Shown in pieces: positions 9,632 through 40,782 of a stretch of DNA of 64,000 nucleotides. Below the pieces are notes generated by a model, which saw only the letters and a program-made list of their open reading frames with translations, ran no database searches and was not told the origin of the DNA. This DNA comes from Membranipora membranacea (taxonomy: Eukaryota > Bryozoa > Gymnolaemata > Cheilostomatida > Membraniporidae): NCBI GenBank assembly GCA_914767715.1, contig OU612071.1, forward strand, positions 6,369,493-6,433,492, given 5' to 3'. Position 1 is the first letter of the stretch, and every line of letters begins with the position of its first letter. Both the position numbers and the translations under genes were made by a program.

Positions 9632-9637
9632 CACAAG
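9632..9637. repeat. left target-site duplication CACAAG
   Basis: CACAAG directly precedes the left terminus TATGGGG. The same six bases follow the right terminus at 40777-40782. A 6-bp duplication fits a retroviral-integrase-like DDE enzyme and marks the exact insertion edges. Confidence 0.85.
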
Positions 9638-10558
9638 TATGGGGAGCCCTTTGTAAAAATTTGTCATGTCAATTAGAGCATTGCATATGTGATATGCCAA
9701 GTTTTATACATGGCATACCAACTTTTATATGTTGCATGTCATAATTTATATATTTATGCCCACTTTTCCATGTTATATGCCAATTCTAATTTCTGTTGCA
9801 TCATCATTCATATGCGATATGCTGACATTCATGCATGCTATTCCAACATACATCCATGATATGCCACCTTTCATACATGACATGTAATAATTTGTGTGTG
9901 ATATGATGAAATTCAAGCATGTCACATCAATATTCATGTTTGCTATGCCAAGATTTCTATTTTTGTTGATTCATGTATCCCACTTGCTAGTTGTCTTCTC
10001 TCATTTATGTTATACCAACATTTATATGCGATATGTCAACACAAAAATTTATGTGGCATCAAGAATTGTCAGCGAGTCAACATGACAGACAATGAGAAGT
10101 TATCCTCACTTAGCAGTAGCCTGTGCTCCCACTATAATGTATAATAGAGAGAACGTTAGGTGTGCATTTCCTCGTTCAGTCTCAGCACGGATAGTGTCAC
10201 CCATTCATCAATTTCCTGCAGTGCCAATCAACAACTCCTTGCTTTGATAAGGCCATGACAAATCACTTTTAGGTTTGTGTCAGGTCCCTTGTGGTCTTTC
10301 TCATTTACCCATGATTTTTGTGTCAATTTTATCACCTTCCTGGTCAGAGTCCAATATGGTTGGTGTGATACATATTTAATATTGTACTGTAACTACTGTT
10401 ACTTACTGAGTTACTGTACTGGTATGATTTTTTTTAGTTGTTAACTCAGCTACCTCCCAGCTACCTAAAGTGTGACTGTCATGGCCTAATGACATTACCA
10501 CATATACCCCGCCACAGGCCCCCTGCAGCCCTGCCACACTCCCTATATGCCCACAGTC
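9638..10558 (+). repeat. left terminal inverted repeat
   Basis: This stretch matches the reverse complement of 39893-40776 across its length, with scattered substitutions and small indels (for example extra bases near 10456 and 10479-10510 in this copy). It starts TATGGGGAGCCC and ends CCCACAGTC. The outer 400 bp consist of degenerate short repeats of the type CATATG..ATATGCCAACATTCAT, spaced roughly 20-27 bp apart. Such subterminal repeats are typical transposase-binding regions; binding itself is inferred. Confidence 0.9.
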
Positions 10559-10702
10559 CACAGACAGCATTGATTTGATGAGTTGCAGCCTTGTGTGTGT
10601 GTGTGTGTGTGGCAAATCAAATCAAATGTCAGTGACCTGCTGTCTGTGCACAGTCGGAATGTGGGCATCTAGGGAGCGTGGCAGGGCTGCAGGGGGCCTG
10701 TG
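10511..10702. repeat. foldback at inner end of left TIR
   Basis: The inner end of the left TIR (about 10511-10570, GCCACAGGCCCCCTGCAGCC...) is repeated in inverted orientation at about 10635-10702, with a 65-bp loop holding a (GT)n tract at 10591-10612. This gives a local hairpin that the right end lacks; the right end instead has a short palindrome at 39866-39890. It may record an aberrant end-repair event. Confidence 0.75.
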
Positions 10703-11645
10703 GGTCTTGCCGTGTCAATCGATAATATAATTATATTATAATTATATACCGCATATCACAATGTTATCTTTTGCAAGAATCAATTAATAAATGTATCAAA
10801 CTCACTCAATATGTCTCATCACTGTATCATAATAGATTAGATCTATGATTTCTGGAATTCTATTGGGAAAACCTTTAACAGTATTGGGCAGAGTTGAAGT
10901 GCTCATCACTTTTGTGTGCGATTATCTCATCAGCAAGTAATACAATCTTCACTTACCCCAATCCTATAAAACTGCACACATTTACAGTTGGAGTTATAGA
11001 CCATAGTGCATCTAACTAAACCCAATAATCCTTGTTTTGATGGCTCCCTCAGGTCCCGATGGCTGGTGCGTATAAGATTGATGTCAGCTATGATCAGTTG
11101 CTGCAGTTGCTGACTGTCACACTACAAAGACGGAGATAGCCTGTTATTTTCAAATAAGTCGCCCCACACTGAACAGTATCATCACCGATTACGAGCTTCA
11201 AGATCTCAGGCAATGGTAAGTTACTTCACTTTGTTAATTTCAGCTCTGTGAATTTGGTGTGTCAGTTGTAACCACAGCCACTCCTTTCAAGCTTGTTCGG
11301 AGGTTATCGTGTCTGTAGGCGGTCATTTAGGGATGGCTGTAGTTTGAATTGGCCTCTTTTAACCTTACCAAAAAACTTACCCAAAGCGACAAAAGCCAGC
11401 AAACATTGGGAATAACCTCAAAAAGGGTTTTTTCAACAGAAAAGAATTGAAATGCTTTTATTTTTCCTGTTGCAACTATGGAAATAATAAAAATAACTTG
11501 AAAGTAGCCTACGGTATTAGAATCTATAGGTTGTACATTCGGGACTGACAGTTTGGTAATTTATAATGTACCGTGTAGTACAGTAGTTCAAATCCTGATA
11601 ATCCAAAAACCCTGATATTTAGAACAAACATAGTCAGTCCAGGCC

Positions 11646-11745
11646 ATAGACCTAATATAAAAATTATTTTATTTATTTATATTATATAATATACTAGCAT
11701 ATATATATATAATATAAATAATAATTTTATTCATATAAGGTCTAT
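11646..11745. repeat. AT-rich palindromic mini-element, copy 1
   Basis: Starts ATAGACCTAATATAA and ends in the near reverse complement, ATATAAGGTCTAT, around an A/T-only core. Shorter relatives lie at 22353-22392 and 39784-39836, so this is a small repeat family and not chance low complexity. Confidence 0.7.
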
Positions 11746-11880
11746 TGTCTCGGCTGAGTACACTGTAATTACCATCGCTTAAGTAAAACTTTCACCCATA
11801 CTTTGAACATTTGACAGCTGACTTTTCAAAAACTAGCGAACAATTTCACATTTCTCTGAACAATCTTTCTCACCAGTCGG

Positions 11881-13145
11881 TAGTTGGCCCAGGGGGTCAA
11901 CTCTCAAACAATCATACACCATGATCATGTTTATAATTCTTTTTATCCCCTACAACGTTTATGTGCTTCTGAAATCTACCCCCTTTAAGAAGAGTTGAGA
12001 GTCGTGATTGACCCCTAAGAGGATGATTGACGATCTACGCAAATTTTGACCAATTATTTTCAATTTTCTTCTTGGCGAGGTTAGTGTATTGTATGGAAAT
12101 TCAAAGACCAACAACAACTCCATGAAAAATTTGTCACTAGGCATTTGAAGTTACATACTTTATACAGAAGAGAAGACAAGAACTGAAAGGTATATTGATT
12201 ACTGCAGTGATTCGATCATGGATCCTGATCACTGGTTGCCATGACAGGGTAAGAAACCTAGGGAAATCTGGGATTGAATACAGCACCAACAATCAGAAAA
12301 ACTATGGTAGTTTTTGCAGGTTATCGTTGTATTAAGTCCCAGAAATCCCTGTTTTTTACTCACCAGTAATCGTTAGTAATCGATTATGTAAAAATCTGCA
12401 TCTCCCTTATCAATCAGTACAGTTAGGATATCTTTGAGCCCTTCATTGTGCCCATTCATATAGCCACAGAACTTAATCGCATTAGCGGATCTGGACATTG
12501 AGCTAGTGGTAGAAATATTCTGTTTTCCATGACAATGCGCGATCCTCCCACATGAATTACTATCCCCAATATCATGGCCTTCTGTTGTAAATTGGGAAGC
12601 ATGTTGATTCTGAGCCATTTATGGTTTTCCAGCTTTTTCCCAGCAGCCTACCGCCGTAGTTGATTCTGCTTAAGTGATAACTCTTAGCAACAGAAGCAGT
12701 AAACCTGTAAAACTGTTCCATTGTTTCAGTAAAATCCCTGTGTAGATAAATTGCATTTTTTCATGTTTTCTGGCAGTTATCCCTTCAATATGATTGAGGG
12801 GATAATTCCTACAGAAAATCGGTTTCATGATTTTTTGAGTCCCCCTCTGGCCCCGAGGGAAGAGAGAGTCTATGCTCCTTAAATCTCAACCCCAAATACA
12901 CCACTAGTTGAACATATAGCATAACTCTAAAGAGAAATTTCGATTTGAAGTGGAAAAATACCCCCTACAAGTCAGCTATATGTGAATTACACCATTTTTA
13001 CTTGTGAGTATTCTGAAAACTTACCCTCTACAACTCCTGCTAAGAGGAGTTCCAAAACGTTTTAGGGGGGTCCCCCCCAAAACGATCATAATAACATGAT
13101 GATGGTGTATGATTGTTTTAGAGTTGACCCCCTGGGGTAGTTGGG
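11881..13145. mobile_element. inverted-repeat (MITE-like) element, 1.27 kb
   Basis: The left arm (11883-11932; CAGGGGGTCAACTCTCAAACAATCATACACC) matches the reverse complement of the right arm (13092-13145) over about 50 bp. No transposase is seen inside. Related termini with the core CCCCAGGGGG recur near 22275 and at 39318/39613, all inside the giant transposon. This is a non-autonomous DNA element nested in it. Target-site duplication was not determined. Confidence 0.7.
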
Positions 13146-14436: not shown

Positions 14437-15400
14437 GGCAAGGCTAACTGATGCGGAACTAGACGACATTACTGAGAAAGCAATGGTGAAATTGCCGGGC
14501 ATCGGAGAACGCATGCTTAGGGGCCACTTCAGGTCATTAGGTCACAGAGTGCAACGGCGCCGACTCAGGGAGTCAATTAAACGTGTTGATCCGATTGGTG
14601 TTGAGCAGCGCCGTGAGAATTTACAACGCAGGATCACCAGGCGTGTTTACAATGTCCCACATCCTCACTATATCTGGCACATTGACGGCAACCACAAGAT
14701 GAATCGCTGGGGCTTATATATCCATGGGGCTATAGATGGTTATTCGCGAAGCTGCCTTTACTTGGAGTGTCATAGCAATAACCTGGCTGAAACTGTGTAC
14801 CAGCTATTTGCAGAGGCTGTTGAAAGATTTAATATAATTCCTACACATGTAAGATCTGATTACAGAACTGAGAATGTTCGAGTTTGGGATTTTATGAATG
14901 ATATCTCAGATTTAACCGGGAGTCCAGCAGTCTTCCTCGGATCTTCTGTACATAATCAAAGAATAGAGCGGTTCAATCGCGAAATCAATAAAAACATACG
15001 TGACAAGTTTGGTGTGTTGTTCAAAATGTTGGAAAGTCGAGGAATTCTAAATGTTGAAGACTCGCTGGACATTTTCGCCCTCCACTATGTCTTCCTACCC
15101 CGAATAAACGAGTCACTCAGAATACTTATGAATTCTCACAACAACCACCCAGTCAGCTCGGAGGGAAACAAGACTCCTTATCAAATGCTTGCAACAGGAG
15201 GATTCGAAGTGCCATACAACAAAGAAAGTGTTGATATGACACAGACATTTCGAAATAAAAATGAAATAGAGGAGCTTATTCCTCCTGAATACTTAGAACA
15301 CATGATTAATACAGTACCATCATTTACAGCTGATAATGATCATGGTTGTACCGTTTACGAGGCGATCAGGGAATTTCTACACGCATATTGTTATGAATAA
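14437..15400 (+). CDS. rve-type DDE integrase/transposase
   Basis: Encodes a protein of at least 305 residues from the ATG at 14483. A clean acceptor (TTTTGTTGCAG) precedes 14437, and the frame is open from 14438 with family-like residues, so an upstream exon is likely and the ATG may be internal. The rve catalytic core is plain: WHIDGNHK with D68, RSDYRTENV with D126, and VHNQRIERFNRE with E162 (counted from the 14483 ATG). This gives D,D(35)E spacing as in retroviral integrases. Segments such as LRESIKRVDPIGV, IHGAIDGYSR and LHYVFLPRIN match the metazoan 'integrase core domain' proteins found in many copies in fish and invertebrate genomes. It is predicted to cut and join the element's ends in the nucleus. 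One oddity is that the usual Gly of the S-D-x-G-x-E-N motif is Arg here (SDYRTEN). The N-terminal DNA-binding exon was not found. The stop lies 670 bp from the convergent HECT gene's stop. Confidence 0.88.
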
Positions 15401-16070: not shown

Positions 16071-16342
16071 TTACATTGTTCCAAAGAGTTTTGTGCTGAA
16101 TGCTGTGTCCATCAGCGCCATCAGCCTGGATTCAGCAGGATAACGAGTAGTCGAATCTGGTGGGATCGGCAAATACATCTGGTTAGCACATGTAGATGCT
16201 GTAGGCATCCAGTGCTCATGAGGACGGAAGGTTATAGTAGGCTTCATCTTGAAACCAAGCACGGGTTCATATCTGCTGCCAGTGGCGAATTCCAGAATAT
16301 CTTCTGGTGTTATTTTTCCGTTAACTCCTTTTCGATTTCCAC
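16071..16342 (-). CDS. HECT ligase last exon, catalytic C-lobe
   Basis: Acceptor TTGCTTTCAG, stop TAA. It encodes GNRKGVNGKITPEDILEFAT, then GSRYEPVLGF, then WMPTASTCANQMYLP and a short tail ending TKLFGTM. LPTASTC is the active-site motif of HECT ligases, and Cys in TASTC is the expected thioester residue. The usual final Phe a few residues from the C-terminus has a plausible counterpart in LFGTM. Confidence 0.9.
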
Positions 16343-19300
16343 CTGAAAGCAATGACACTATTGAACAACATGTATGTTTTTGCATTAACCAAGGTTAGAT
16401 TGCCTGAGGGAGGATTTCTCCGCTGTGACAATACTGCTAAGATAGGTCTTCTCATGGTTTCCACTAACAATTAAGAAAGAAAACTCAAGTTAAAGGTTTA
16501 TAAAAATGACAAGCTGAAACCTATGGAGCGCTCTTGTTCAGTTTTGAATTTTTAGCTATGTTGACTGCATTTCACTAAGAAATCATGTGAAATAGCTGCA
16601 TTTTACTTGATCTACCAAAGACAATTTATCAGCTAATTTGTGTATGTCACTTTGCTAGTGTTTTAGGCTTGTAGCGGAGGGCCTGAAAAGTGACTTTGTA
16701 GCTATGAACTGTAAAGCTAAACTTATTTTTGCGCAGGAGTGTTCATCGGCACCATGACTAACAAGACATAATTATAACATGATTCTCGCTTACCGAAGAC
16801 GTCTCTGACATATTTATTGAACAGCCCGTAAGCTGGATCATGTCGTTTTCTCAAATTACTACTCTGGGGAGCATCAGATTGTGTGGTGAATATTCTGAGA
16901 AAACGGGATGGCGTTTCGTGTTTTTGTTTGTGTGTCATCATCAGCTGTTCCACTTCTTTTATCTCCATCAGCTACAATATTACATTGGCATTAATCCAGG
17001 GGCGATTATGACCACTACGGAGATATTGGCAATGGGAGTTATCCTCCCATGAAAAAGAGGCAGACAATTAACATGTCTGAAAAATTGAAAACGGTCAAGT
17101 ATGTCAAAACGGTTGAACATAGAGTTGATATAGGGGTTTTTTGGCACGTTTTATTCAAATTTCCCAGCTATATCTTTCTGTTTTCTCTACTCCTTCAACG
17201 TGTTTTGAGCCCTTTCGGGTTGGATGAGGCAACAGAAAGCTAGACTAGGCAGTAAACTTTTTTTTGCAATATACACCCCCTGCATCAATCTCACCTCACG
17301 TCTTTTTCAGTAGGGTATGGGAATGATGCCAGCATTCAACTAAAACAGCAGATTAAAACCTACCAGTTATTTCAAACTTGGTACCTACTACCCACCTTCC
17401 AAATGCCTGAGCGCTTCAGTCCACTCTTATATTGCTCGTAATGCTCTCCGTCCTTCAATGGTGGTACCGTACATACAGGCCCTCCCTGTATCACACTCAT
17501 TCCTATTAAACGAGAATAAGATACTTACACCTCAATTTGAATACAGTTCATGTCTACTACAGGGTAAAAGTTTATGCGGAGTTACAATAGGAAGCATTGC
17601 TGCAATGTTGACAATGTACCAATATTTCCATCAGGGGATGTGACAATAAGGAAGTACCGTGATATCTTGCCTATAAGACACAGGCCTTTTAAGTGAATCG
17701 TCAAATCTGTCAAATTTTCAGGCTTTATCTCGTCCTAGAGTAAACGTTGAAATTAGATTGATTGATTGAGGGAAATATCCAGCTCTCGCTGTGGCAATTC
17801 ATGGGAATGTTAAAGCGTTAGACTTAGTACTACGTGCATGGTGGGGGTGAATCACAATTTTCCCTATAGATAAAGACATAGACAAAGAAGGCTTTGATAG
17901 GAGTTGGTCTAATGCGGGCAAGTCTTGATGTAATGTCATGGCCCTAAAAAGATGTTTGCGCATTTAAGATTAAGAAACCATTTGGGAAAACCCGGTAATA
18001 GGTCACAGAAGATAACAATTTTTTGTGCATGCAGAAGATATAGCTGGCTGGCTGTTGATGAATTTTGCCGCCGAATCTTTATCTGTAAAGAGTGCCGACA
18101 TTAGGTCTAATGAGAATATGCATTGCCTTCAATGACACTTGCTTTAACCAGTCAATTGTAGGATGAGGAATGTTTAGCAACAACTGCTTGCTCTTGACAA
18201 CTTTTGCATTACCCAGAGTGGCTCGGCTCTGTATTATCCAATATTTGCAAATGTGGCCTGGCCCTGTAAATATCTGGTCCATAGCTAATAAAGTGTACGA
18301 CAAGACAGTCATGAAAGACCCAAAACTTCATCAACCAATCATTTTAAATATGTATTGTGGACCTATACGTTGAAAGCCTCCTCATTTTAAACTTCAGTAC
18401 CTGTGATAAGGCCGTAAACATAGTAGAGCTGACTGTCAAAATGTCCCTTAATATACACTAGCTCGTTATCATCCTCTGTAAGCATCTCCCTCACTTCTGT
18501 GAGAAAAAGGTTGAAAAATTCCTTGCGTGGACCTCCATAATCCTCTGCATCTGAATAAAAAACAATAATTATGATTAATGAGTGTACAAGAAACCTACAA
18601 GTATGGTAAAGATGTGAGAGATTAATCCTAGACTCTACGCAGGACTCGGGGGGATGGGCCAGCAGAGGACAGGCTCCCTTCTCCCTTATGCACCAAGGAA
18701 GACCTAACCCTAAGGATAGGTATACACCCGAGGGTGCTGGGGGCTGGAACAATCAACAATGAATGCTCCCCCAGTGGGGCTCGAACCCACAACTCCTGCG
18801 GCACTAATCGCCTGGCAGTGAATAGCAAGCGCGCTAACCGATTGCGCCATCTCACCATCCCCAAAAAAGAATGGGTCGATGGCGCTAATTAGATAGCCCG
18901 CTATTCACTACTCGGAGTTGTGTTCTCTCATCCCACAGCACATTCCATTCCACCATTGCCACCCTATGAAACACAGCGTACGTGTTAGGGTTATTGGCCT
19001 TACATGGCCCATTGCTGGGACCCCTTGTAGTAGGTTTAGCTGTCTTTCCAGCTTGTCAGCATGTCTTTCCATGCTGTCACATGTCTTTCCATGAGTCAGT
19101 CAGTAGACAAGTACACAGGATAGGTATACACCCGAGGGTGCTGGGGGCTGGAACAATCAACAATGAATGCTCCCCCAGTGGGGCTCGAACCCACAACTCC
19201 TGCGGCACTAATCGCCTGGCAGTGAATAGCAAGCGCGCTAACCGATTGCGCCATCTCACCATCCCCAAAAAAGAATGGGTCGATGGCGCTAATTAGATAG

Positions 19301-28300: not shown

Positions 28301-31300
28301 GGCATAGAGCTATTGATTGCGGGAATCTAACGAATTGCTAATAATATCTGACGGGCAGGTTTGAAGCTGTATTTGTGTAAAATAAGGTGAGAAAGACCTA
28401 TTTTTGACCAATTTTCTCTGCTTCAATTCCCGCCCAACAGATATTATTGGCAGTGTTGACTGTACCCCACATTTAATAACTCCACGCTTTATCTAGTAGC
28501 ACATACAGCCCAAATTTTTAACTCCCCACCCAAAATTTGCTCCAAAAGGATCATTACTGTGCTAACAAGCTTCATACTGAAATGTCCCGTGTATGCAATT
28601 TGAGTAGGGCTGTGGAGAAAAATTGAGAAAGAAATATATGATATCCTCCGTGTGTGGTATCCATCATTCCAGATTTCATTTCTATGTTGTTGTGACCCAT
28701 AGACTTAAAGGGGAACACAACAAAGAAAATTGATGTTGACTGAAAATGAATAGTTTCTCAGCAGCTTTACCGGATCGGAAACATAATTTGTCTATCATGC
28801 TTAGTTTCCAAGCAAATTGAATTTGTATTATGCTTGGGATTTCCCAAAAGATTCCAAGGTTGAGAAAACCAGCAATGAAGCCTCAAAAAATCTTGCTTTC
28901 TATGTACAGTAGAGCTCTGAATTGAGTGTCACATAGTTTATTAATAATTGCAGTAGCATAAAACAAGAGCTCGCGTCTTATGCCCTGCTCATTCCAAAGA
29001 TAGCATTTAATCGAGATTATAAACAAATCAACTTCCTTTTTGTTGACGTCAAATCAAAAATTTCACACTGCTGTAAAATTGAATCCGGCGCACCTAAACA
29101 AGTCAAATTTTGATTCTGTGCTCAACTACAGTTCCTCCATGAGATATGAGCATTTCAGCAAAATCTATTTTTCACTCCCCCTGTGTTGTGTTTAGCTTTA
29201 ATTTAATATAATAAACATGGCATCAGTGTCTGTTCTGCTGAACAATTAATTCTATGTCGCAATGTCACAGAAATTCCAACAATATATGTCCCACTTTGGA
29301 CTGTATAGTCTAAGTGAGGCACATATCAAGTCCATGATGTGACCAAATCTGACAAAAGGAACCCTTGTACAGTCCCCAGATTTGGAGACTCTCATTAAAG
29401 ACACCCCCTCTGCCTCTTTGTGAAGAGGAGCTGGGCTAGCGGCGGGCATGGGTATAAGGCTACAGCAGAAACAAGAGCTTTGGCCAACTTTGTGAGGACT
29501 ACATTTCTATGAGTGCATACAGGGTACTACTAACCTTGCACCTTTCAAAACACCCACAAACAGTTCATTAAACATCCTTATCATGTCCTGCTTGGTATAT
29601 GAAAGGGTAATTTCAACATTTCCATAATATGTATGCGCTTGAAGATAAAGTGCAAGTTTTTCCGCCCCCATGGGTACTTTCCTAGCAGACGGGGATGTCA
29701 TCAGTGTGACTGTTTTTGCGAACGTGCGACCTTGCATCATCCTTCCCCCACTCTGATCACTAGCCCTGTAATAGAAAAAAGTTGTGTATGCTTGGGGCCA
29801 GGATCAAGTTTTACAATGGCCAATTGGGAAACCTAAGGCTGGTCTGATGATTATAATCAAATTGTAGTTGCTGGAATAGCTGAGTACCAGTAGTAACAAA
29901 TGGCATGTATTTAAATATTTGAGCCTTGAACATCTGTCAACATGGTGAAATACACTGTTACATACCATTAGGCCATTCAAAATTAATGTGTTGGTCCAGA
30001 TATACACTTTGGGATCTGCCCTGGTGAGGGAGGAGGACTTTTATTTTAGGATTTTTGAGTATTTTTACGCTAATTGAGGCATAAAATTGATAACATCCTC
30101 TATAATTTGGATATCTGACTTCTTTTTCAAGAAAAAAAGAATCAAATGTGCTCAATGTGAGAAGAAGGAAGGTGAGAGATGAGGTATTTTGTTTCATCAG
30201 ACCCCATTTCCTGTGGAGCTGGAAACTGCTAACTTACCCCCTTGTTAACTGGACCAACACATTAATTTGGAGTAGCCTTACGACGAATGGACACTCATCA
30301 TAGGCCTACATAATGTTCACTTGTTTGAGATAGAACAAAATGACCAAATGTATATACAAGTATTTTAAAACACTTGGGGGACCTGTGCCCACAGGACGCT
30401 TCACCCAGGGGCGTATTAAGCCACCCACGAGTCACATTTTTTCAGCGGGTGTCTCCCCAAAAGGGGATAACTCCCAAAGTGAAAATTCAACAGATATGGA
30501 CAGACACTAGGGGTGATTGACCCTTCTGAGAAAAAAATCTGGCCTTATTTTTGCGCTAGGTCTACTCCTTACCTGTTATTTCAGCTTTTTGTTGTTGAAA
30601 ACCATGAAAAAATCAATAGAACTAGTGGGTGGGATCATCAGCCAATGACACCCCTGGCGTCATTCGTCTGACTGGTTAATTTGGAGGTACAAAAACACAT
30701 AGATAGTAGATTCTTCAATAAAGGTTGCTTGTTATAAGCTGGATTATACAATTCAAACTCAGGGCTTGTCCTGCGGCAGTCAATAACTTCCTTACCATGG
30801 AGGAAATGATGAATTACAGTTACTGTGTGAGATCTCAAGTTCTCACAGCTCAGGAGATTTCAGATAAAGAGAATGGAGCCAGGTGATACCAGTTGACGTC
30901 AACCACTTCAGAATAATGTATATAATTAAAGTCCAACCTCCGCCTTTTTGGAGGGGATTAGGCGCTGACATTTAAATGATATAGATAATTAAAGACTTTT
31001 TATCAGAAACAAAATCTGGATCAAATCTCCGCTTTTGTCAAGAGGATGGGCAAATGCGATCTCCGGTTTTTTGGCCATGCGCGCCCGCCGTGGTGAACCC
31101 CTGTGCATATAAAAACCGAGGGAACATCAAGGCGGGTCAGTTCTGGCTGGAGAGCCCTTGGAGCATGTTTTTATGGTAAAGTATAGATTGCTTTTCTGGT
31201 ATCTAACTTAGTTTATTATTCAAGAATAAAAATTGATTTTAATGTCGAAAAGGCATCTCAACTATGAGTCATTAGTAAATTGAATTAATACCTACTTGTA

Positions 31301-34300
31301 ACAAAATTCTAAAGAACAATGTTGTGGATAAATTTGATTAGGTAAACAAAACACTTTTTGTATGGAGTTGCCTTCTTTCTCAACGGGAAGAGGTTAACTC
31401 CATACAAAATAAACATGAGCAAAATGAATGAAATAGTGGTGTCTGTTCTGCTCGGGTATTCGGCCCCAAGTGGGTCAAATATGCGACAGAATTCTGGTGC
31501 CCCGAGTGAATTTTAACTTACGACCTTCCAGTTTTGAGACTGATTCGCGATCATGCTGCGTTATTGTCATTATATCCACTTTATTTAGCATCGATCTAGA
31601 GTAATATCCATGTAAGTACATGTAGCAGTATCATTTTTTTTTCTCTTAGTATTAATCGAGCGTCTCTTAGTATTAATCCAGTGAGACGATAGCTGTAGTT
31701 TTGTTGCCACAGTTAGCCATAATTCAGTTATCATTATCCATTTCTCAAGATGTGTAGTGGATGTTTCTTCTTCTCTCATACTGTAGTGCTGGTATGATGC
31801 TTGTCATTTTTGGCGATCAGCATGATTGTTTCTTTCCAGTGCCTGTAATAATAAGAGTTAAAGGGCGTTAATCATGCATCAACACATTCACGCTTCGTAT
31901 CAGCTAGATGTTTTATTCATAGGACATTAGCATTATTATTCTATTCTCTAGATATAATTAATGCTGGATAGGATTGTATTCAAACCGAACTTCCCGAGCC
32001 GACGACATATTTAACTGAAGAGAGATTAATCATCCATTACAACGTAAGTTGACAAAACAGCCTTTACCTCACAAATCACCAGGTTAAACCTTGAGAAAAT
32101 TATAGGGTTTGAAAATTCTTTTGAGACGACAAAATTACAACCATGGACAACAAAAGTAAGGAAATTCTGGTCCAGGAAAATGCTGGGACGGATAAACAAA
32201 ATATTTATATGGATACTGGAAAAATATTATTATTACTATGGAGGAAAAAATTGGTGGACAAATTGAAAGGAAAATAGGAGGAAAATTATGGAAAATTGAA
32301 ACCGGGGAGCTCCAGCGGCAACTAATCACTCCATTTGTATGGAATAGGCCTATGGGGCTAGTTGTCAGAGGCTGCAGACTAATCAAGTAAATACGCGTAC
32401 TTAGTTGAGTTAATATCATTCCTTCATTAAAGATTGTCTGAATCTGGCTTTATCTGACAACTGGTCTGACTCTGTACACTTGGGGGGATTGATTGTCCAT
32501 ATGTTATACAAAGAGGATATAAAGGAGGATATAAGGAGGATATTTATTTTATAGGATTTATTTAATTTTTTTTTTTCAAGTCTTTTGTCAAAAATCAGGC
32601 GCTTTCAACTTCTGATTACAGGATGAAGCTTCAAAACTACTAGCAATTTTCCTTTCATTTAGTTGTTTTGCCTGTGTTTAGAGTTAAGTTCACTAATTTT
32701 CTATACAACTTGAAAAGTTTTATTTTTGTTGTCACCAGTATCTTTTTAGATTTGGAGGTAAATAGTTTAAACTAGTGAAACATTTATACTCCCATGTTCT
32801 TGCAAGTTTTTCACCAACGTTGTCTGTGGTTTTGATCTTTACAAACGGAATATAAACAATTATAACTGGTCTCAAAAGTTAACACGCAATGACATTTTAT
32901 ACAAACCCCTTCGGTAGAATGGGATCATTTAACCACGGGGACGGTAAGTCATGCTAGTAATAGGAAGTGACTATAAGAAAATTGCGTAATAATGGACATT
33001 GATGTACAATGCTATGTGTATTCAGACATCCAAATTATGTTAAAAAGTTACCCAACAACATACCTGTCACAAGTGGCGGATGCCTTGAGATATCTCATCG
33101 CCATACCTGCCAGTTGGTCCGCTTACAGGCTATCATGGGGTTAAACTACCAAATACAAATTGTGATATGAATATAAATATTGCTGGTTTCATGATCATTT
33201 TTCTATGGATAATTGCGTGTTGACTTATACCAATGTATTTACAAGACAAGGTAAACCGTTGGAAATTTGTGTAGGTGATTTGTCAGGTTGTTTTTAAAAG
33301 GATGGTTATTTGTCGGCTCGGGATGGTTCAATGGTCATTTTGAAACTTAAAAGTATTGCAGTTATATTGCTGCGAACCTCTCAACACAAATAACCCTGTA
33401 CCGGCAAAACATAGAATTCACATGTACTTGTTGTAAATAACTCAATGTACATACCTTGTCGCCCAGTTGGGGGATAATCTTTTCAGTTGTAGGTCTAATA
33501 ATGACTAAGATATGTAGTTGATTACCAAATTGGGAATCTCCGCTATTATTATAGGTAAGGCCTCATTTATTACTAAGCTAGTTGACTAAGTGCTGAGGTT
33601 AGCTGAGTGTTGAAGTCTACTGCACAGCACAACTAACACAAGTAGTTAGTTTCCATAGCAATAGGTATGATTGATGAGTACTATCTAATTAAAAAGATGT
33701 CTAATGTATTAGGGGGTTAAATGCTACTAAACCTGCTTACGGCATAGTTTCGCTTGACTTCCACTCTGATGTTAACAAACTTATTTCAAGTAAATTATTT
33801 CATGGTTGGCTGTCAGTGGGCTTGAATTCCCATAGCAGGCGTATCAACCTGCAACCACGCATAAGAAATACAGGAACTAATTTAGAAAGGCATGTCGGAT
33901 GGTGCATCACCTGTAATTAGATAATATAAGATTTTAGATGCGCATTAGAGTTTTCACGGTCATTTGGGAGTCAAAGTTTGTGATTTATCATTTATTTAGG
34001 TAACTATTTAAGGGAGGTCTTGGTATTGGACGTTTGTGTTGTTTATCTATAATGGTTACTCTTATTGCGCCGTTAAAAATCCGGACGAAACTTTAGATAG
34101 TTGTTTTTTGAAGTTCAAAGTAATTGTAAATGCAGATATCTCTGTATGTCAGTAAAACTGGTTTTATCAACTGACCACTAGTTCTGACAACACTACTAGC
34201 CTCAATAGCCTAAATAGCATTAGTGGAATATGGGATGGAGTTTTTATTAGCACTCCATCTATTGATGTAGGAGGGGATAACTCTCTATTAGCATTAGTTT

Positions 34301-37300
34301 CATACACATTGGATATTCAATGAACTAAGATTAAATTAGGATAAGGTGTTTGAAGTAATTGAATAAATCAGGATAAATTATGCAATTAATACTTTTTGTA
34401 TTAGGTAAATAAGAGTGTATGGATTCAAACAAGCATTTAAAGCTAATTCTAAATGTAGGCACATGCCGATGACCTTGTCTGTCAAATTTGGATCGTGGGG
34501 ACCTGGGAGCTTTAGTTGTAGGATTACTCCGATGATCGAAGCATTGTATCCTACTGTTGAGTGATGTGCAGGTTTTTGGGGAGGGGGCCCAGAAGAACTG
34601 TTCATTTTTGTCTCACTATACTCAGTATTCAGTGTCAGTAAACATTTCTTTAGAATTGCCGTTCACAGCGTCCTGCCGCTCCCTGACTGTCACATGCGGG
34701 AATAATCTTTCATGTAGGGTTTGGGTTTCCCTTCCACCTGATGGTAGGGCCTAAGTCACTCGCGACTATGATTCAGTTGTAGTGCAATTACTGTGAGCCT
34801 TCCAATATAAAGCAATCAGGGAGGCAAACTGGGCTTTCGAGCCTATGTTGGTAGGGTGAGCTTCATGATCACAGGCATTCCAAACTTTGAATCGGCAAAA
34901 TATTGATGGTATATTCAATTTGAATTGAGTTCTTCTTACAGGGCCACTCCCAGAGACTGCTGATTTGGGCAACAGTGGATGTTGTTATGCCGAGAGCGGT
35001 GGGGAGTATGACTGCTGTTTGAATTATACAGGACCCACGGCAGAATTCTCGGTGGTTAAGGTCATTGGTCAGTGTCATTTGTCTGTTAGTTGTTTGTTAG
35101 TTGAAAAATTTAATTCACCAAAAAGGGTGTAGGGCGAAAAATAAGGATTAGCGTTTGGGTTAAAAGAGTCATCAGTTTAAATTTGATTGATGAATCAGTA
35201 ATTTCCAATGGTACCTATCCATTATCCAATATTGAGAGTACCTTACCAGTAGTAATTGAGTGTTTTCTGTAGCAGTAGGTTTAAGTTATAGTTACCATGG
35301 TTAAATTTGTAATTTAGGTTTAAGTTATTAGATGGGAAATAATTATACTCTATCCTTCACAAATTATAAAAGTTGTCTGGTTGCCAGTGTCGGTCAGTTG
35401 ACAACTCCAAGCTAGGAAAAAGTAAATAAATAGTTACTAGTCTAACCAGGTAGTTTATTCAAAGCGCTTTGGCTCAATACTGTATTTGTAAACAAAAATT
35501 TGATTGAACGGATCTATCCATAACTTTTATTTCATTCATCACTGGGTTAGTTCATCTGGTTACCATTCCATGCTATTTTCTGTGGTTTTCCATGGAATGC
35601 CTTGCATTCCGGGTCAACTGATTTGTTTTCAGTGATGCAGTGTAGATGGCCGAGGGGTAATGAGGGAGTGCCAGTACTAAGAGCTATGGTTCAGACGACA
35701 TAATGGACAATGTCGAGCCAACTATCCTGATGAGCCAGGAATATAATGTAAATAAAGCTTGTGAAGATTTAGACATTTCTCTCACAAGTGCGAAGGGAAA
35801 TAATTGCGATAATATTATGAGTTTTATTTTTTGTCGCGAGGAAGGAGGATACAACTCCGAATTGAATGCTAAAATTGTCTATTGTGTAAATTAAACAATG
35901 TTCCTGAATTTGCTTAGAATTGTTGGGAGTGGGAAGTGACCTGTCATTTTGCCTTTAGTGTCATAGTCTTTAGATTAGGTCACCTGATAACCAATCTATG
36001 CTATTTCCTTTGGTTCTCCGTGGAATGTCTGGCATTCCGGATTAACCGATTTGTTTGCAGAAGGGAGTGAATGGCTGCTTTCAATGCTGCTTATATAATG
36101 GCGATCTAGGATGTATAATCATTCATTATGGTGGGCTGGCTATCCTGATGGACAGGGAGACTCAATAGAAAGGAGATGTCACTAATTGAAAATTACTATG
36201 GAGACCCAGGGTGAACTATGGCAGCTTAGCTACCCAAGTGGATCAGGAGGAGATGATCAGAGGAGTGGCAGAGGAAGTGAGACCTCAACTCGGGCAGCGG
36301 GGTTCAGCATGAGCCGGAGGCTGTGAGATAACTTCACAGCTTTCTTTGGAGGACCCAGGAGGGTCCGGAGAAGGAGCGGCAGAAGCTGTGAGATAACTTC
36401 ACAGCTTACTTCAGAGCACAGGAGAAACAAGGAGAAGAAACTGTGAGATAACTTCACAGCTTCCTTTGGTGGACCCAGGAGGGTCAGGAGAAGGAGCGGC
36501 AGAGGCTGTGAGATAACTTCACAGCTTCCTTTGGAGGACCCAGGAGGGTCAGGAGAAGGAGCGGCAGAAGCTGTGAGATAACTTCACAGCTTCCTTTGGA
36601 GGACCCAGGAGGGTCAGGAGAAGGAGCGGCAGAAGCTGTGAGATAACTTCACAGCTTCCTTTGGAGGACCCAGGAGGGTCAGGAGAAGGAGCGGCAGAAG
36701 CTGTGAGATAACTTCACAGCTTCCTTTGGAGGACCCAGGAGGGTCAGGAGAAGGAGCGGCAGAAGCTGTGAGATAACCTCACAGCTTTCTCGGATGACTC
36801 AGGAGAGTCAATAAAAAGGGAGGGCAGAAGCTGTGAGATCTCAAGTTCTCACAGCTCAGGAGATTTCAGATAAAGAGAATGGAGCCAGGTGATACCAGTT
36901 GACGTCAACCACTTCAGAATAATGTATATAATTAAAGTCCAACCTCCGCCTTTTTGGAGGGGATTAGGCGCTGACATTTAAATGATATAGATAATTAAAG
37001 ACTTTTTATCAGAAACAAAATCTGGATCAAATCTCCGCTTTTGTCAAGAGGATGGGCAAATGCGATCTCCGGTTTTTTGGCCATGCGCGCCCGCCGTGGT
37101 GAACCCCTGTGCATATAAAAACCGAGGGAACATCAAGGCGGGTCAGTTCTGGCTGGAGAGCCCTTGGAGCATGTTTTTATGGTAAAGTATAGATTGCTTT
37201 TCTGGTATCTAACTTAGTTTATTATTCAAGAATAAAAATTGATTTTAATGTCGAAAAGGCATCTCAACTATGAGTCATTAGTAAATTGAATTAATACCTA

Positions 37301-38091
37301 CTTGTAACAAAATTCTAAAGAACAATGTTGTGGATAAATTTGATTAGGTAAACAAAACACTTTTTGTATGGAGTTGCCTTCTTTCTCAACGGGAAGAGGT
37401 TAACTCCATACAAAATAAACATGAGCAAAATGAATGAAATAGTGGTGTCTGTTCTGCTCGGGTATTCGGCCCCAAGTGGGTCAAATATGCGACAACTGTA
37501 ACACTATGACATGAATGTCGATGCATCAACGCAAGGCAACTATATATTGCCTTTGGAAATCAATTACAATCAATCAATTACAAATCGATTACAATTACAA
37601 TCAATCTTACATTGATGTTGTTGCTGTTACTGTGCGGGTCGTGCAATGGTTGAAAACCAATATACATGTAAGACTATTAGTTGCCATAATCTTCATAAGC
37701 CAGTGTGTAACAAGAACTAGCTGAGGATAGAATGTTTGCTGTATGACGTTACCCTCATTGAGAGATCTTCCATGAAATGGCTGGAAATCTACCCATATTC
37801 TAGACCGTCAACACCAAGCTTAGGTCTAACTTCGACCAATCCATTTGCCTTTTTGTATTTGGGAAGAGGAACATCCCAAAAAAAAGGAAGAGACCAATGG
37901 ATTTTGTCTAGTCTTACTGAACCGAATTTCCTATTTTGGGACCCTATTATTGCATGCTAATTGACAGGGAAATCAATTTTGGAGAAGCATGGTGTTCAAA
38001 TGATAAAATCATATTCATACCTTCTTCGGGTAGCTCTCCGTTGTGAGGACGGGGGAATTAGCCGGTTACGTAGGTCATTTAAGTCTGACAT
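16071..38091 (-). CDS. HECT-type E3 ubiquitin ligase, multi-exon (G2E3-like family)
   Basis: The gene runs from an ATG at 38091 to the TAA at 16071-16073. Exons (descending): 38091-38021, 29765-29535, 27782-27608, [gap], 23918-23841, 21842-21513, 19908-19652, 18550-18401, 17502-17396, 16971-16794, 16342-16071. Every adjacent pair joins in phase except across the 27608-23918 gap. The product is about 610 residues: a basic N-terminus, an N-terminal region like that of the animal 'G2/M phase-specific E3 ligase-like' multicopy family, an acidic/Ser-Thr-rich linker, then a HECT domain. HECT hallmarks are PLEVSF, AEDYGGPRKEFF, VIQGGP, EDILEFATGS and the catalytic TASTC. The enzyme class forms a ubiquitin thioester on that cysteine. 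The HECT N-lobe appears about 100 residues short. The gene lies wholly inside the giant transposon, so it is cargo rather than host sequence. Intron 1 holds the LTR element. Confidence 0.85.
16794..16971 (-). CDS. HECT ligase exon before C-lobe
   Basis: Encodes LMEIKEVEQLMMTHKQKHET...LFNKYVRDVF, 59 residues and a split Gly codon. It corresponds to the end of the N-lobe and the hinge. Donor TCTTCG|GTAAGC is strong. The acceptor ATTGTAG is weaker but gives phase 0, matching the exon before. Confidence 0.75.
17396..17502 (-). CDS. HECT ligase exon, QGGP segment
   Basis: Encodes MSVIQGGPVCTVPPLKDGEH and then EQYKSGLKRSGIWK. The first part is the conserved G-x-x-I-x-GGP helix of G2E3-like HECT domains. 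In relatives about 100 residues of E2-binding subdomain separate GGP from the GL..LGI motif; here both lie in one short exon. Acceptor TTTAATAG, donor AAG|GTGGGT, phase 2 in and 0 out. Confidence 0.8.
18401..18550 (-). CDS. HECT ligase exon, N-lobe core
   Basis: Encodes DAEDYGGPRKEFFNLFLTEV at its start and LYYVYGLIT at its end. D-x-GGPRREFF is the most conserved N-lobe motif of HECT ligases. Acceptor TTTTTATTCAG, donor ACAG|GTACTG. The split Gly codon joins to MSVIQGGP of the next exon. Confidence 0.9.
18713..19357 (-). repeat. tandem duplication of a tRNA-derived SINE
   Basis: Blocks 18713-18953 and 19117-19357 (241 bp each, offset 404) read as identical. Each contains, on the minus strand, a tRNA-like head (18770-18856 and 19174-19260) with an A-box-like TGGCGCAATCGGTTAGCGCG and B box GGTTCGAGCCCC. 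The SINE body (TGACTGACTCATGGAAAGAC) follows between the copies. Flanking sequence is duplicated with the head, so this is a segmental tandem duplication and not two insertions. It lies in a HECT intron. Confidence 0.8.
19652..19908 (-). CDS. HECT ligase exon, start of HECT domain
   Basis: Acceptor TTGTTTTTAG, donor GAAG|GTAGAG. It encodes about 85 residues ending in DTRVPLEVSFRLE, the start of the HECT N-lobe (family pattern PLxVxFxGE). The final G joins AT of the next exon to give Asp, producing the continuous HECT text LE-DAEDYGGPRKEFF. Confidence 0.85.
21513..21842 (-). CDS. HECT ligase low-complexity exon
   Basis: Acceptor TTTGTTAG, donor AGAAG|GTACTA. It encodes about 109 residues. The first part (TADSDEDIEVVSEQ) is acidic, the middle is Ala/Thr/Ser/Gly rich, and the end (LSNEEKSILIAFNEARR) is helical. 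The end leads directly into the HECT N-terminal exon. Acid- and Ser-rich linkers are common upstream of HECT domains. Confidence 0.75.
22353..22392. repeat. ATAGACCT palindromic mini-element, copy 2
   Basis: A near-perfect 40-bp palindrome: CATAGACCTAATATAAATA mirrored to end in ATTAGGTCTATG. It is the shortest of the three relatives (see 11646 and 39784). It sits inside the relic of a CCCCAGGGGG element near 22275. Confidence 0.7.
22632..22980 (+). other. broken coding-like stretch of unknown origin
   Basis: Two adjacent plus-strand segments look protein-like: 22632-22716 (NPRTPIALANVERLLRTTPY, then a stop) and 22763-22978 (DDPRDYFLKFSPNFVKFRKD...FIQAFIPLLLTERET). They have no good start codon, no splice evidence and no family I recognise. 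They lie in a HECT intron on the opposite strand. They may be a decayed gene fragment or chance. Confidence 0.2.
23841..23918 (-). CDS. HECT ligase acidic linker exon
   Basis: Acceptor GTTTTACAG, donor CCAG|GTGTGT. It encodes 25 residues, EEKDEGDDLPAISLNESGNE then ESTNT. It is acidic and Ser/Thr rich, as expected for a disordered linker. Its 3' phase matches the next exon exactly (Arg codon split AG|A). A possible 11-nt microexon at 24903-24913 would fix the phase on its 5' side, but that is weak. Confidence 0.65.
25549..25626. repeat. small foldback element
   Basis: AGGTACTAAAAAGGTACTAT at the left and its inverse ATAGTACCTTTTTAGTACCT at the right enclose a loop of about 30 bp. It sits in a HECT intron. 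It may be a minimal MITE; no other copy was seen. Confidence 0.6.
27608..27782 (-). CDS. HECT ligase exon 3
   Basis: Acceptor CATTTTTAG, donor CAG|GTGAGC. It encodes 58 residues, including LVPPNLPPDQTLNALNLKKV and LGQSKYIYLLP, the end of the N-terminal module of this family (pattern: L.P......L....GQ..IYI.P). It joins exon 2 in phase and ends in phase 0. The following recognised exon needs a phase-2 partner, so at least one small exon is missing from this model. Confidence 0.75.
29250..29450. repeat. SINE-related fragment
   Basis: Contains CCCCTCTGCCTCTTTGT near 29404-29420, which also occurs in the plus-strand SINE-like copy near 59363. The surrounding text is similar but diverged. It lies just downstream of HECT exon 2, in the intron. 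Confidence 0.4.
29535..29765 (-). CDS. HECT ligase exon 2
   Basis: Bounded by TTCTATTACAG and AAG|GTTAGT. It encodes GRTFAKTVTLMTSPSARKVP..., including KLALYLQAHTYYGNVEITLS. This matches the N-terminal region of G2E3-like metazoan HECT proteins (pattern: basic, TV.LM, VP.G...LY...G...I.F). The phase is 1 base in and 2 bases out, compatible with both neighbours. Confidence 0.75.
30822..30825. repeat. LTR element target duplication ACTG, left
   Basis: ACTG lies immediately before the 5' LTR and again at 37495-37498, immediately after the 3' LTR. This fixes both ends of the insertion. Confidence 0.75.
30826..31488 (+). repeat. 5' LTR
   Basis: Begins TGTGAGATCTCAAGTTCTCA, itself an imperfect hairpin, and ends GCGACA. 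It holds a TATA box (TATAAAAA, 31108-31115) and AATAAA (31225-31230), giving a plausible U3/R boundary roughly 25-30 bp after the TATA. No coding frame. Confidence 0.9.
31108..31115 (+). promoter_or_regulatory. LTR TATA box
   Basis: TATAAAAA follows a GC-rich block (GCGCGCCCGCCG) in the 5' LTR. The 3' LTR copy is at 37114-37121. It is probably the core promoter of the retrotransposon RNA. Confidence 0.6.
31489..36237 (+). other. LTR element interior, non-coding
   Basis: About 4.7 kb with no long frame and no retroelement protein motif. It contains micro-tandem AGGAGGATATAA units near 32515 and a diverged repeated module (about 35563-35660 and 35990-36085) with the shared core GGAATG.C..GCATTCCGG. 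The short frame at 35703-35894 has no recognised similarity. Confidence 0.6.
31495..31508 (+). other. primer binding site candidate
   Basis: TGGTGCCCCGAGTG begins six bases after the 5' LTR. TGG at the start matches the complement of a tRNA CCA end, as needed to prime minus-strand synthesis. The specific tRNA was not identified. Confidence 0.6.
36238..36831 (+). repeat. 65-bp tandem array running into the 3' LTR
   Basis: CTGTGAGATAACTTCACAGC recurs at 36321, 36386, 36441, 36506, 36571, 36636, 36701 and 36766, with spacing of 65 bp except one of 55. The next position in register, 36831, is the base before the LTR start (TGTGAG). Each unit carries a hairpin (AAGCTGTGA...TCACAGCTT) and a GGACCCAGGAGGGTCAGGAG block. 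Confidence 0.9.
36813..36830 (+). other. polypurine tract
   Basis: AAAAAGGGAGGGCAGAAG lies just 5' of the 3' LTR, as required for plus-strand priming. Only one pyrimidine interrupts it. Confidence 0.65.
36832..37494 (+). repeat. 3' LTR
   Basis: The same 663 bp as the 5' LTR with no difference seen by eye; offset 6006. It is followed by the ACTG duplication at 37495-37498. Confidence 0.9.
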
Positions 38092-38094
38092 CGT
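38021..38094 (-). CDS. HECT ligase exon 1 (first coding)
   Basis: After an acceptor (CTTTACAG) three bases precede the ATG at 38091. The exon encodes 23 residues, MSDLNDLRNRLIPPSSQ followed by an arginine-rich stretch, and stops at a GTATGA donor in phase 2. The next exon supplies the single base needed to complete an Arg codon. The acceptor implies at least one more upstream, probably untranslated, exon between here and the right TIR. Confidence 0.7.
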
Positions 38095-39317: not shown

Positions 39318-39613
39318 AAAGCCCCAGGGGGTTCACTCTCCAGAAACCCCCATAGCACTCTGTGAAAGAATTTCAGGGAGGTACCCTTTTCACATTCAAC
39401 CTATATGAAACCAGTACCCTTTTTGTGAGTCTTTTGAGACAGCACAATGATGATAGATATTCATACCTATTATACTCTGTCCACCTAGGAAAAAGCACCC
39501 TATTTCTTTAAATCACTCTAGAGCACCTGTGAGCTTATAAAGTGCCCCTAAAACGTGGATTTCCTGTTGAGCCGTGTGGGTCATTTTGGTCAAGTGAACC
39601 CCCTGGGGATAAA
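39318..39613. repeat. short CCCCAGGGGG-ended element
   Basis: AAAGCCCCAGGGGGTTCACT near 39318 and the inverse AGTGAACCCCCTGGGGATAA near 39593 bracket about 295 bp. The ends resemble the 11881-13145 element. No coding frame of note. Confidence 0.5.
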
Positions 39614-39783
39614 GCCTGCCTGTGCTGCCTGGATCCCACTTCAATGTTGCTTTCCAAGCAGCACCCAACTACATGTATTTTCCCTAGGGCAGCACACTGA
39701 TTTTGGGAAGCACTACCATAAATCAACTCAATCTTGTAATCAGTGAGCTAGGGTAGCAAAGATTTAATTCTATGAGGGTGGCC

Positions 39784-39836
39784 CATAGACCTACTAATAA
39801 TATAAATAAAATATATATATGTATATAAGGTCTATG
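39784..39836. repeat. ATAGACCT palindromic mini-element, copy 3
   Basis: CATAGACCTACTAATAATAT at the left and TATATAAGGTCTATG at the right around an AT core. It lies about 55 bp inside the right TIR. Confidence 0.65.
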
Positions 39837-39865
39837 GGGTGGCTATTGCAAAAACAGAGCAGTAG

Positions 39866-39890
39866 AGTTACAAAAGGGCCTTTTGTAACT
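39866..39890. repeat. palindrome abutting right TIR
   Basis: AGTTACAAAAGG, a central G, then CCTTTTGTAACT form a perfect 12-bp-arm palindrome ending two bases before the inner edge of the right TIR at 39893. The left end has a different foldback there. Confidence 0.7.
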
Positions 39891-39892
39891 CC

Positions 39893-40776
39893 GACTGTGG
39901 GCATCTAGGGAGCGTGGCAGGGCTGCAGGGGGCCTGTGGTCACACTTTAGGTAGCTGAGTTAACAACTAAAAAAAAATCATACCAGTACAGTAACTCAGT
40001 AAGTAACAGTACTCAGTACAAAATTAAACATGTATCACACCAATCATACTGGACTCTGACCAGGAAGGTGTTAAAATTGACACAAAAATCATGGGTAAAT
40101 GAGGAAGACCACAAGGGACCTGACACAAACCTAAAGTGTGATTTGTCATGGCCTTATCAAAGCAAGGAGTTGTTGATTGGCACTGCAGGAACTTGATGAA
40201 TGGGTGACACTATCCGTGCTGATACTGAACGAGGAAGATGCACACCTAACGTTCTCTCTATTATACATGTAATTATTTTTATAGTGGGAGCACAGGCTAC
40301 TGCTAAGTGAGGATAAAATCATTGTCAGTCATGTTGACTCGCTGACAATTCTTGATGCCACATAAATTTTTGTGTTGACATATCACATATAAATGTTGGT
40401 ATAACATAAATGAGAGAAGACAACTAGCAAGTGGGATACATGAATCAACAAAAATAGAAATCTTGGCATAGCAAACATGAATATTGATGTGACATGCATG
40501 AATTTCAACATATCACACACAAATTATTACATGTCATGTATGAAAGGTGGCATATCATGGATGAATGTTGGAATAGCATGCATGAATGTCAGCTTATCAC
40601 ATATGAATGTTGATGCAACACACATTAGAATTGGCATATAACATGGAAAAATGGGCATAAATATATAAATTATGACATGCAACATATAAAAGTTGGTATG
40701 CCATGTATAAAACTTGGCATATCACATATGCAATGCTCTAATTGACATGACAAATTTTTACAAAGGGCTCCCCATA
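39893..40776 (-). repeat. right terminal inverted repeat
   Basis: Reverse complement of 9638-10558, about 884 bp, ending CCCCATA. It lacks the 30-odd extra bases that the left copy has near 10480-10510. The same subterminal short repeats are present. Confidence 0.9.
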
Positions 40777-40782
40777 CACAAG
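40777..40782. repeat. right target-site duplication CACAAG
   Basis: CACAAG directly after the CCCCATA terminus, identical to 9632-9637. Confidence 0.85.

What the first reader, a model, noticed from the sequence alone, without database searches (positions are those of the whole stretch)
9632..40782. A 31-kb DNA transposon carrying an integrase and a spliced HECT ubiquitin ligase
Seen: inverted repeats of about 0.9 kb, exact ends TATGGGG/CCCCATA, a perfect 6-bp duplication, an intact D,D(35)E integrase and a complete-looking HECT gene, all inside one bounded unit. Known: integrase-core genes and G2E3-like HECT genes are both present in high, unexplained copy number in fish and marine invertebrates. 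Inference: the two families may spread together as one giant mobile element, with the ligase as functional cargo acting on host or transposase proteins. I know of no clear description of such a unit.
Basis: partly seen in the sequence, partly recalled or inferred. Interest (0 to 1): 0.95.

Follow-up and report, generated by a model that had tools for sequence, protein, structure and literature searches.

The report
Jumping gene carrying a ubiquitin ligase
This stretch is a large cut-and-paste transposon of the IS3EU type that carries, besides its own transposase, a second gene for a HECT ubiquitin ligase, and the same pair of genes sits together in several other copies and relatives, so the ligase looks like a regular part of the mobile element.

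Summary
The bounded unit is real: 9638-40776, ends TATGGGG/CCCCATA, target duplication CACAAG, inverted repeats of about 0.9 kb. Ends, 6-bp duplication and an rva_4 (rve-type) DDE transposase fit the IS3EU/GingerRoot superfamily. In the unnamed host's genome six inverted-repeat pairs enclose both genes. Sites with different flanks and 97-100% identical coding exons (C3, C4, C7) show that the whole two-gene unit moved. Of 22 transposase loci, 13 have a HECT gene within 3 kb (11 by search, where 0.08 pairs within 15 kb are expected by chance; 2 by direct reading); in 10 of the 13 the genes lie tail to tail. That layout recurs in relatives with 53% and about 30% identical transposases, and on a contig that is probably sponge DNA. 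HECT therefore appears to be a standing second gene of these elements. What it ubiquitylates is unknown; its role is inferred. My searches found no open-access paper describing this; Repbase could not be searched.

The parts
9632..9637 (.). left target-site duplication CACAAG
   Evidence: read directly; identical to the right copy
9638..10559 (+). left terminal inverted repeat, TATGGGG end; outer about 400 bp is a degenerate array of 21-bp units
   Evidence: 21-bp autocorrelation z 8.3 against 500 dinucleotide shuffles
11059..11215 (+). transposase exon 1 (helix-turn-helix); 1-nt frameshift in this copy
   Evidence: tblastn of fish-type relatives; comparison of seven copies
14437..15400 (+). 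transposase exon 2, DDE core (rva_4/rve), stop at 15398-15400
16071..16342 (-). HECT gene last exon, C-lobe with catalytic Cys (..STCANQMYLP..) and stop
16794..16971 (-). HECT exon
17396..17502 (-). HECT exon
18401..18550 (-). HECT exon (..YGGPRKEFF..)
19652..19908 (-). HECT exon
21513..21842 (-). HECT gene exon, low-complexity linker; 5' boundary uncertain (an ATG-started reading goes to 21931)
27608..27782 (-). HECT gene N-terminal domain exon
29535..29765 (-). HECT gene N-terminal domain exon (..KTVTLMTSPSARKVPMG..); further upstream exon(s) not found
30826..37494 (.). nested LTR retroelement, no frame above 108 aa seen (LTRs 30826-31488 and 36832-37494, identical); not part of the transposon proper
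   Evidence: absent from five other copies
39893..40776 (-). right terminal inverted repeat, CCCCATA end
   Evidence: 21-bp autocorrelation z 10.8
40777..40782 (.). right target-site duplication CACAAG

Best explanation
A large two-gene DNA transposon of the IS3EU/GingerRoot superfamily. Shown: it is bounded by about 0.9-kb inverted repeats whose outer part is built of 21-bp units, makes 6-bp target duplications, and its whole unit sits at several sites with different flanks. It encodes a spliced transposase (HTH exon plus DDE core) and, tail to tail with it, a spliced HECT-type E3 ubiquitin ligase. Shown: related loci in the same genome, down to about 30% transposase identity, and a contig probably of sponge origin keep the same gene pair. 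Inferred: transposase binds the 21-bp arrays, cuts the element out and inserts it with a 6-bp stagger. Inferred, and only moderately likely: the ligase is kept because it helps the element, most likely by ubiquitylating host proteins that repress or process transposition (counter-defence), next most likely by turning over the transposase complex after strand transfer. The window copy itself is probably not self-sufficient, because its transposase is frameshifted.
For: Ends and TSD, TIR, superfamily features from passages of PMC10045372 and PMC12730594. Genome searches (counts are lower bounds by the tool's own note): 30 TIR matches, 77 HECT exon matches, 29 transposase matches. Both genes between TIRs: C7 6379130-6410268, C7 6627094-6650917, C4 27002518-27029394, C3 10071154-10091891, C8 10469778-10486349, C8 10601222-10616872 (transposases of the two C8 copies decayed). 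Duplications: C7 CACAAG, C3 TTCAAT and C8 10601222 CCGTAA perfect, C4 TCTTAG/TCTTTG (5 of 6), C8 10469778 CCGTAA/CCGTTG (4 of 6). 1.5-kb flanks of C3 and C4 are unrelated to C7. Transposase found beside the HECT last exon in 7 of 8 loci. 13 of 22 rva_4 loci with HECT within 3 kb, 10 of 13 tail to tail; 11 found by search against 0.08 pairs expected within 15 kb, 2 by reading. Second family C3 24.715-24.733 Mb: 1.4-kb inverted repeats, N-terminal HECT exons 46 and 58% identical, transposase 53%, end TATGGAGTGCC, 21-bp period. C2 37.45 Mb, about 30%. L003: transposase 3337-4810(+), HECT 6111-4996(-), Pfam HECT 1.5e-6. dN/dS of HECT window versus C3 0.31, C4 0.21, C5 0.37.
Against: Function of the ligase is untested. 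Selection evidence is thin and mixed: few substitutions, and HECT window versus C8b gives 3.84, versus C8a 0.70; transposase window versus C4 gives 1.93. The three C7 copies share flanks and the two C8 copies their left flank, so they are not independent insertions; collapsing them gives 10 of 19 loci. Nine of 22 transposase loci have no HECT found: two were read 3.3-3.5 kb downstream without one, seven were not read. Three C5 loci have both genes on one strand; the two read are fragmentary. TIR-only short copies and one-ended copies exist. No TSD could be shown for the second family because its outer left end is lost. Sponge origin of L003 is inferred from its spliced genes and record title, and no inverted repeats of the element were seen on it. 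AlphaFold models were too poor to use (pLDDT 36 and 41).
Confidence: 0.82

Rival explanations
1. Passenger: a host HECT gene was caught once inside an IS3EU element and has been carried along since, without a role in transposition.
For: The related IS481EU elements encode a single protein (passage), so a second gene need not be essential in this group; nine of 22 rva_4 loci show no HECT so far; the two C8 comparisons give HECT dN/dS of 0.70 and 3.84.
Against: The same tail-to-tail pair is found with transposases 53% and about 30% identical and on the sponge-like contig with an open 371-aa HECT frame; I infer that an unused gene would not stay readable so long. 22 of 31 HECT loci have no rva_4 gene within 15 kb, 16 of them with matches over more of the HECT profile, which I take for host genes.
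Confidence: 0.15
2. Chance composite: two related repeats happen to flank a host HECT gene and a separate integrase at this place only.
For: Only one copy lies in the window.
Against: The unit recurs whole at sites with other flanks and other duplications; expected chance pairs within 15 kb 0.08 against 11 found by search.
Confidence: 0.01
3. Polinton/Maverick or other virus-like self-synthesising element (6-bp duplications, long inverted repeats, integrase).
For: 6-bp TSD, long TIRs, rve-type integrase; size in the Polinton range (recalled).
Against: Ends are TA..TA (Polinton ends differ: recalled); outside the transposase core no open frame of 160 aa or more in the element, so no long polymerase or capsid frame was seen; spliced versions of such genes were not searched for.
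Confidence: 0.02
4. The ligase acts in cis on the transposition complex (removing or destroying transposase after strand transfer or limiting copy number) rather than on host defence.
For: It lies beside the transposase at 13 of 22 loci; a convergent layout could couple their expression (inference); no target evidence either way.
Against: None direct; fungal IS3EU cousins carry a TET/JBP gene that its describer thinks helps escape silencing, which points to counter-silencing as a job of second genes in this superfamily.
Confidence: 0.3

Closest known systems
[quoted passage not shown]
   Same: TA..TA termini, usually 6-bp duplications, integrase-like DDE transposase
   Different: 'hect' and 'ubiquitin' occur 0 times in the text; here a second spliced gene and about 24 kb
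TET/JBP-bearing IS3EU elements of rust fungi (PMC12730594, passages seen)
   Same: TAYGG..CCRTA ends (TATGG..CCATA here), 6-bp duplications, transposase and a further enzyme gene (alpha-kinase) in opposite orientations, with TET/JBP between
   Different: Cargo is alpha-kinase and a TET/JBP dioxygenase; 'hect' and 'ubiquitin' occur 0 times in the text; fungi
Proteins with the same integrase core in fish and marine invertebrates (P0018-P0120; 120 of 1418 hits were listed)
   Same: Same PF24764 core, 36-59% identity; some have an HTH N-terminus
   Different: Listed without genomic context; whether they lie in HECT-bearing elements was not testable
HECT protein of the crinoid Antedon mediterranea (P0122) and P0121, P0123-P0125
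   Same: 28-32% identical over 53-78% of the query; the N-terminal part of P0123 aligns to the window's two upstream exons
   Different: Not shown to lie in transposons; window protein lacks 11 residues of an N-lobe loop

Membership tests
IS3EU/GingerRoot | TA..TA termini | tested here: met
   TATGGGG..CCCCATA; same in further copies; second family right end TATGGAG
IS3EU/GingerRoot | 6-bp target-site duplication | tested here: met
   CACAAG, TTCAAT, CCGTAA, AAAACA perfect; C4 5 of 6; C8 10469778 4 of 6
IS3EU/GingerRoot | DDE integrase-like transposase | tested here: met
   PF24764 and PF00665, D,D(35)E
IS3EU/GingerRoot | No HHCC zinc motif before the core | tested here: inconclusive
   A helix-turn-helix exon precedes the core; no zinc motif was searched for formally
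IS3EU/GingerRoot | Transposase groups with known IS3EU in a tree | not testable with these tools
   Repbase sequences not held
Polinton/Maverick | protein-primed polymerase B, capsid, ATPase genes | tested here: not met
   No open frame of 160 aa or more outside the transposase core exon; spliced genes not searched for
Polinton/Maverick | 6-bp target duplication | tested here: met
HECT E3 ligase | HECT C-lobe with catalytic Cys | tested here: met
   Pfam PF00632 above its cut-off (31.1 against 23.9 bits), STCANQMYLP
HECT E3 ligase | complete bilobed catalytic domain | tested here: inconclusive
   N-lobe exons align to P0121-P0125 with an 11-residue gap; Pfam matches only profile 233-296
G2E3-like ligase | PHD fingers N-terminal to HECT (recalled) | tested here: not met
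   No such domain in the 460-aa or the N-terminal 135-aa piece; the first exon is missing from the model

The most novel reading that the evidence does not exclude
HECT ligases are an ancient, near-universal second gene of animal IS3EU transposons (in place before sponges and other animals parted, or spread between them), acting as a transposon-encoded ubiquitin ligase against host silencing; the unexplained crowds of HECT and integrase genes in fish and marine invertebrate genomes are then largely two halves of one mobile element.
Probability: 0.5. Interest if true: 0.88.

Novelty: new variant of a known kind. Interest (0 to 1): 0.74.

Why it matters
A transposon that brings its own E3 ligase would be a direct route by which a genomic parasite edits host protein levels, parallel to the TET/JBP-bearing IS3EU elements of fungi that are thought to escape methylation. 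It would give a simple cause for the large HECT and integrase families annotated as host genes in marine animals, and make the target question testable: express the ligase and see what disappears. It also gives annotators a rule to try (TATGG..CCATA ends, 21-bp arrays, neighbouring transposase and HECT) for removing such genes from host gene counts.

Tried and rejected
Chance composite and Polinton readings were rejected (see rivals). An assembly artefact is unlikely for the unit itself, because it recurs on C3, C4 and C8 with other flanks, but the C7 copies may be segmental duplicates or unpurged haplotypes. Searches that gave nothing: relatives in viral contigs with the transposase alignment, the HECT alignment, a sponge-type transposase alignment and the L003 HECT (0 relatives each); prokaryote contigs with the single transposase (none of 20 stretches). 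The alignment search A2 gave four contigs: L003 with HECT; L001 with 1.0 kb downstream and no HECT seen; L002 running into a retroelement-like frame (Pfam matches below cut-off); L004 ending inside the transposase. The HECT alignment search of the protein database returned no hits. Two AlphaFold jobs gave unusable models and were not searched further. The first coding exon of the HECT gene was sought by comparing translated pieces of the window (29501-30825 and 37499-39950) with the second family; only the known exon gave a clear match. TIR arm divergence was not used as a clock: left arms of the C7, C4 and C3 copies are 97-99.8% alike, whereas left and right arms of the window copy are 95% alike. 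Selection by dN/dS is left open. The joined-flank empty site of the transposon was never obtained.
Full report
OBSERVATION. The element runs from 9638 to 40776. It begins TATGGGG, ends CCCCATA and is flanked by CACAAG on both sides. The inverted repeats align over 833 columns at 95.1% identity, outermost block 459 bp at 98%. The outer 470 bp of each arm have a 21-bp period (identity at lag 21 of 0.459 and 0.506, z 8.3 and 10.8 against 500 dinucleotide shuffles), as expected of arrays of binding sites; that they bind transposase is inference.

GENES. Plus strand: a helix-turn-helix exon (11059-11215) and a core exon (14437-15400) joined by a GT/AG intron; the core matches PF24764 (6.6e-58) and PF00665. 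The D, D and E lie at positions 83, 141 and 177 of the exon-2 peptide; among 16 aligned sequences one differs at the E. Nearest proteins are 99% and 85% identical, then 59% and below; named ones include fish, a crinoid, a tunicate and a nemertean (120 of 1418 hits listed). Minus strand: six HECT exons 21931-16071 give an open 460-aa reading with matching phases, PF00632 E 2.5e-7. Five relatives were found, P0121-P0125, of which P0122 is from the crinoid Antedon mediterranea. Two more exons (29765-29535, 27782-27608) encode an N-terminal domain that aligns to P0123 (E 9e-6). The two genes converge, about 670 bp between their stops.

NESTED ELEMENT AND DECAY. 30826-37494 is an LTR retroelement with identical 663-bp LTRs, an ACTG duplication and a primer-binding-site-like motif; no frame above 108 aa was seen inside. 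Five other copies (C7 twice, C4, C3, C5) carry the site uninterrupted. Of seven copies of transposase exon 1 compared, four are broken (the window, C7 6.63 Mb and the C7 6.12 Mb half share a 1-nt frameshift; C8 10.47 Mb has another) and three are open: C4, C3 and C8 10.6 Mb. The core exon is open over all 320 residues in the window, C7 6.63 Mb, C3 and C4.

OTHER COPIES IN THE HOST GENOME (G000, unnamed, 339 Mb, 18 contigs). The TIR gave 30 matches, the 566-aa HECT query 77 exon matches, the transposase 29; the tool calls such counts lower bounds. Six TIR pairs enclose both genes: two on C7, one each on C4 and C3, two (decayed) on C8. A further pair on C5 (27.29-27.36 Mb) encloses HECT exons but no transposase match, and single ends lie beside HECT exons at C7 7.01, C5 26.32 and 26.41 Mb. 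Transposase lies beside the HECT last exon in 7 of 8 loci held, not in L059 on C5. Duplications are perfect at C7, C3 and C8 10.6 Mb, 5 of 6 at C4, 4 of 6 at C8 10.47 Mb. Flanks of the C7 copies are 99.5-99.9% alike (segmental duplication); the C8 copies share only the left flank; 1.5-kb flanks of C3 and C4 are unrelated to C7, and the 12-bp flanks of C3, C4, C7 and C8 all differ. So four separate insertion sites hold the unit. A TIR-only short copy also exists (C11 2394771-2395986, AAAACA duplicated), with other short or fragmentary TIR matches on C6 and C11.

IS THE PAIRING GENERAL? PF24764 gave 25 matches, which I merged into 22 loci; PF00632 gave 70 matches in 31 loci. Within 15 kb, 9 of 22 transposase loci have a HECT by PF00632 alone, 11 of 22 when matches are added (38 HECT loci); 0.08 pairs are expected by chance. 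I then read two apparent HECT-less loci as controls and both proved to have a HECT: C2 37.45 Mb (transposase about 30% identical, HECT tail to tail) and C5 27.17 Mb (HECT 2.7 kb downstream, same strand). That makes 13 of 22, all within 3 kb, ten tail to tail and three on the same strand. Of the other nine, two were read 3.3-3.5 kb downstream with no HECT and seven were not read; four of the nine are short fragments with weak matches (E 1.8e-4 to 9.1e-4). Collapsing duplicated copies gives 10 of 19. Three stretches of the window outside the element, used as a negative control, gave 0 hits. 22 of the 31 PF00632 loci have no rva_4 gene within 15 kb; I take 16 of them for host genes because they match more of the HECT profile. 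A second family at C3 24.715-24.733 Mb has inverted repeats of 1.4 kb (86%), 53% identical transposase, N-terminal HECT exons 46 and 58% identical, the right end TATGGAGTGCCGTTGGTAAAAG (family 1: TATGGGG[A/T]GCCCTTTGTAAAA) and a 21-bp period (0.512 at lag 21, no shuffles run); its outer left end is lost.

BEYOND THE HOST. Of four contigs found by the transposase alignment in the prokaryote genome collection, one, L003, filed as a symbiont of the sponge Iophon and probably sponge DNA, carries transposase exons 3337-3795 and 3986-4810 and, tail to tail, a HECT frame 6111-4996 (PF00632 1.5e-6), with an N-terminal-type exon further upstream (8231-7893; similarity to the window exon is by eye, the pairwise score was E 0.024 and not along the proposed alignment). 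The other three contigs are too short or interrupted (see Tried and rejected).

CLASSIFICATION AND LITERATURE. From passages of PMC10045372: complete IS3EU families have TA..TA termini and usually 6-bp duplications. [quoted passage not shown] Neither text contains 'HECT'. Searches for a published HECT-bearing transposon, listings only; no paper holds both IS3EU and HECT. Only open-access full text was searched, and Repbase was not available, so a Repbase entry with HECT may exist.

MECHANISM. Cut-and-paste by the transposase follows from the ends and duplications and from established DDE chemistry. The ligase's job is inferred. I rank counter-defence first (about 0.45), control of the transposition complex second (0.3), passenger third (0.15). 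Selection statistics are too few to decide: HECT dN/dS window-C3 0.31, C4 0.21, C5 0.37, C8a 0.70, C8b 3.84; transposase C3 0.41, C4 1.93, C8a 0.32, C8b 0.31 (HECT from up to four exons, not all present for every copy).

Noticed in passing
window 30826-37494: LTR retroelement with identical LTRs and no frame above 108 aa, nested in the transposon and absent from the five other copies read
   Followed up: yes
G000 C7 6.12-7.01 Mb: Near-identical copies of the insertion locus with flanks (99.5-99.9%), one of them split at transposase residue 83 with its halves 868 kb apart (6118252-6123293 and 6991495-7010268): large duplication, rearrangement or scaffolding problem
   Followed up: partly
G000 C5 27171005-27174626, 26632819-26636353, 27436000-27439394: Three loci in which transposase and HECT lie on the same strand about 2.7-2.8 kb apart
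   Followed up: partly
G000 C11 2394771-2395986: Short element made of TIR sequence, perfect AAAACA duplication: non-autonomous derivative
   Followed up: no
window 18713-18953 and 19117-19357: Identical 241-bp direct repeats with tRNA-like cores (Rfam tRNA just above threshold) inside a HECT intron, SINE-like
   Followed up: no
window 54348-56063: Array of 348-bp tandem repeats
   Followed up: no
window 43104-43318: 215-bp palindrome, 98.6% self-complementary
   Followed up: no
L001, L002, L003, L004: Contigs with animal-type transposases filed in bacterial symbiont genome bins from sponges: probable host contamination of those records
   Followed up: partly
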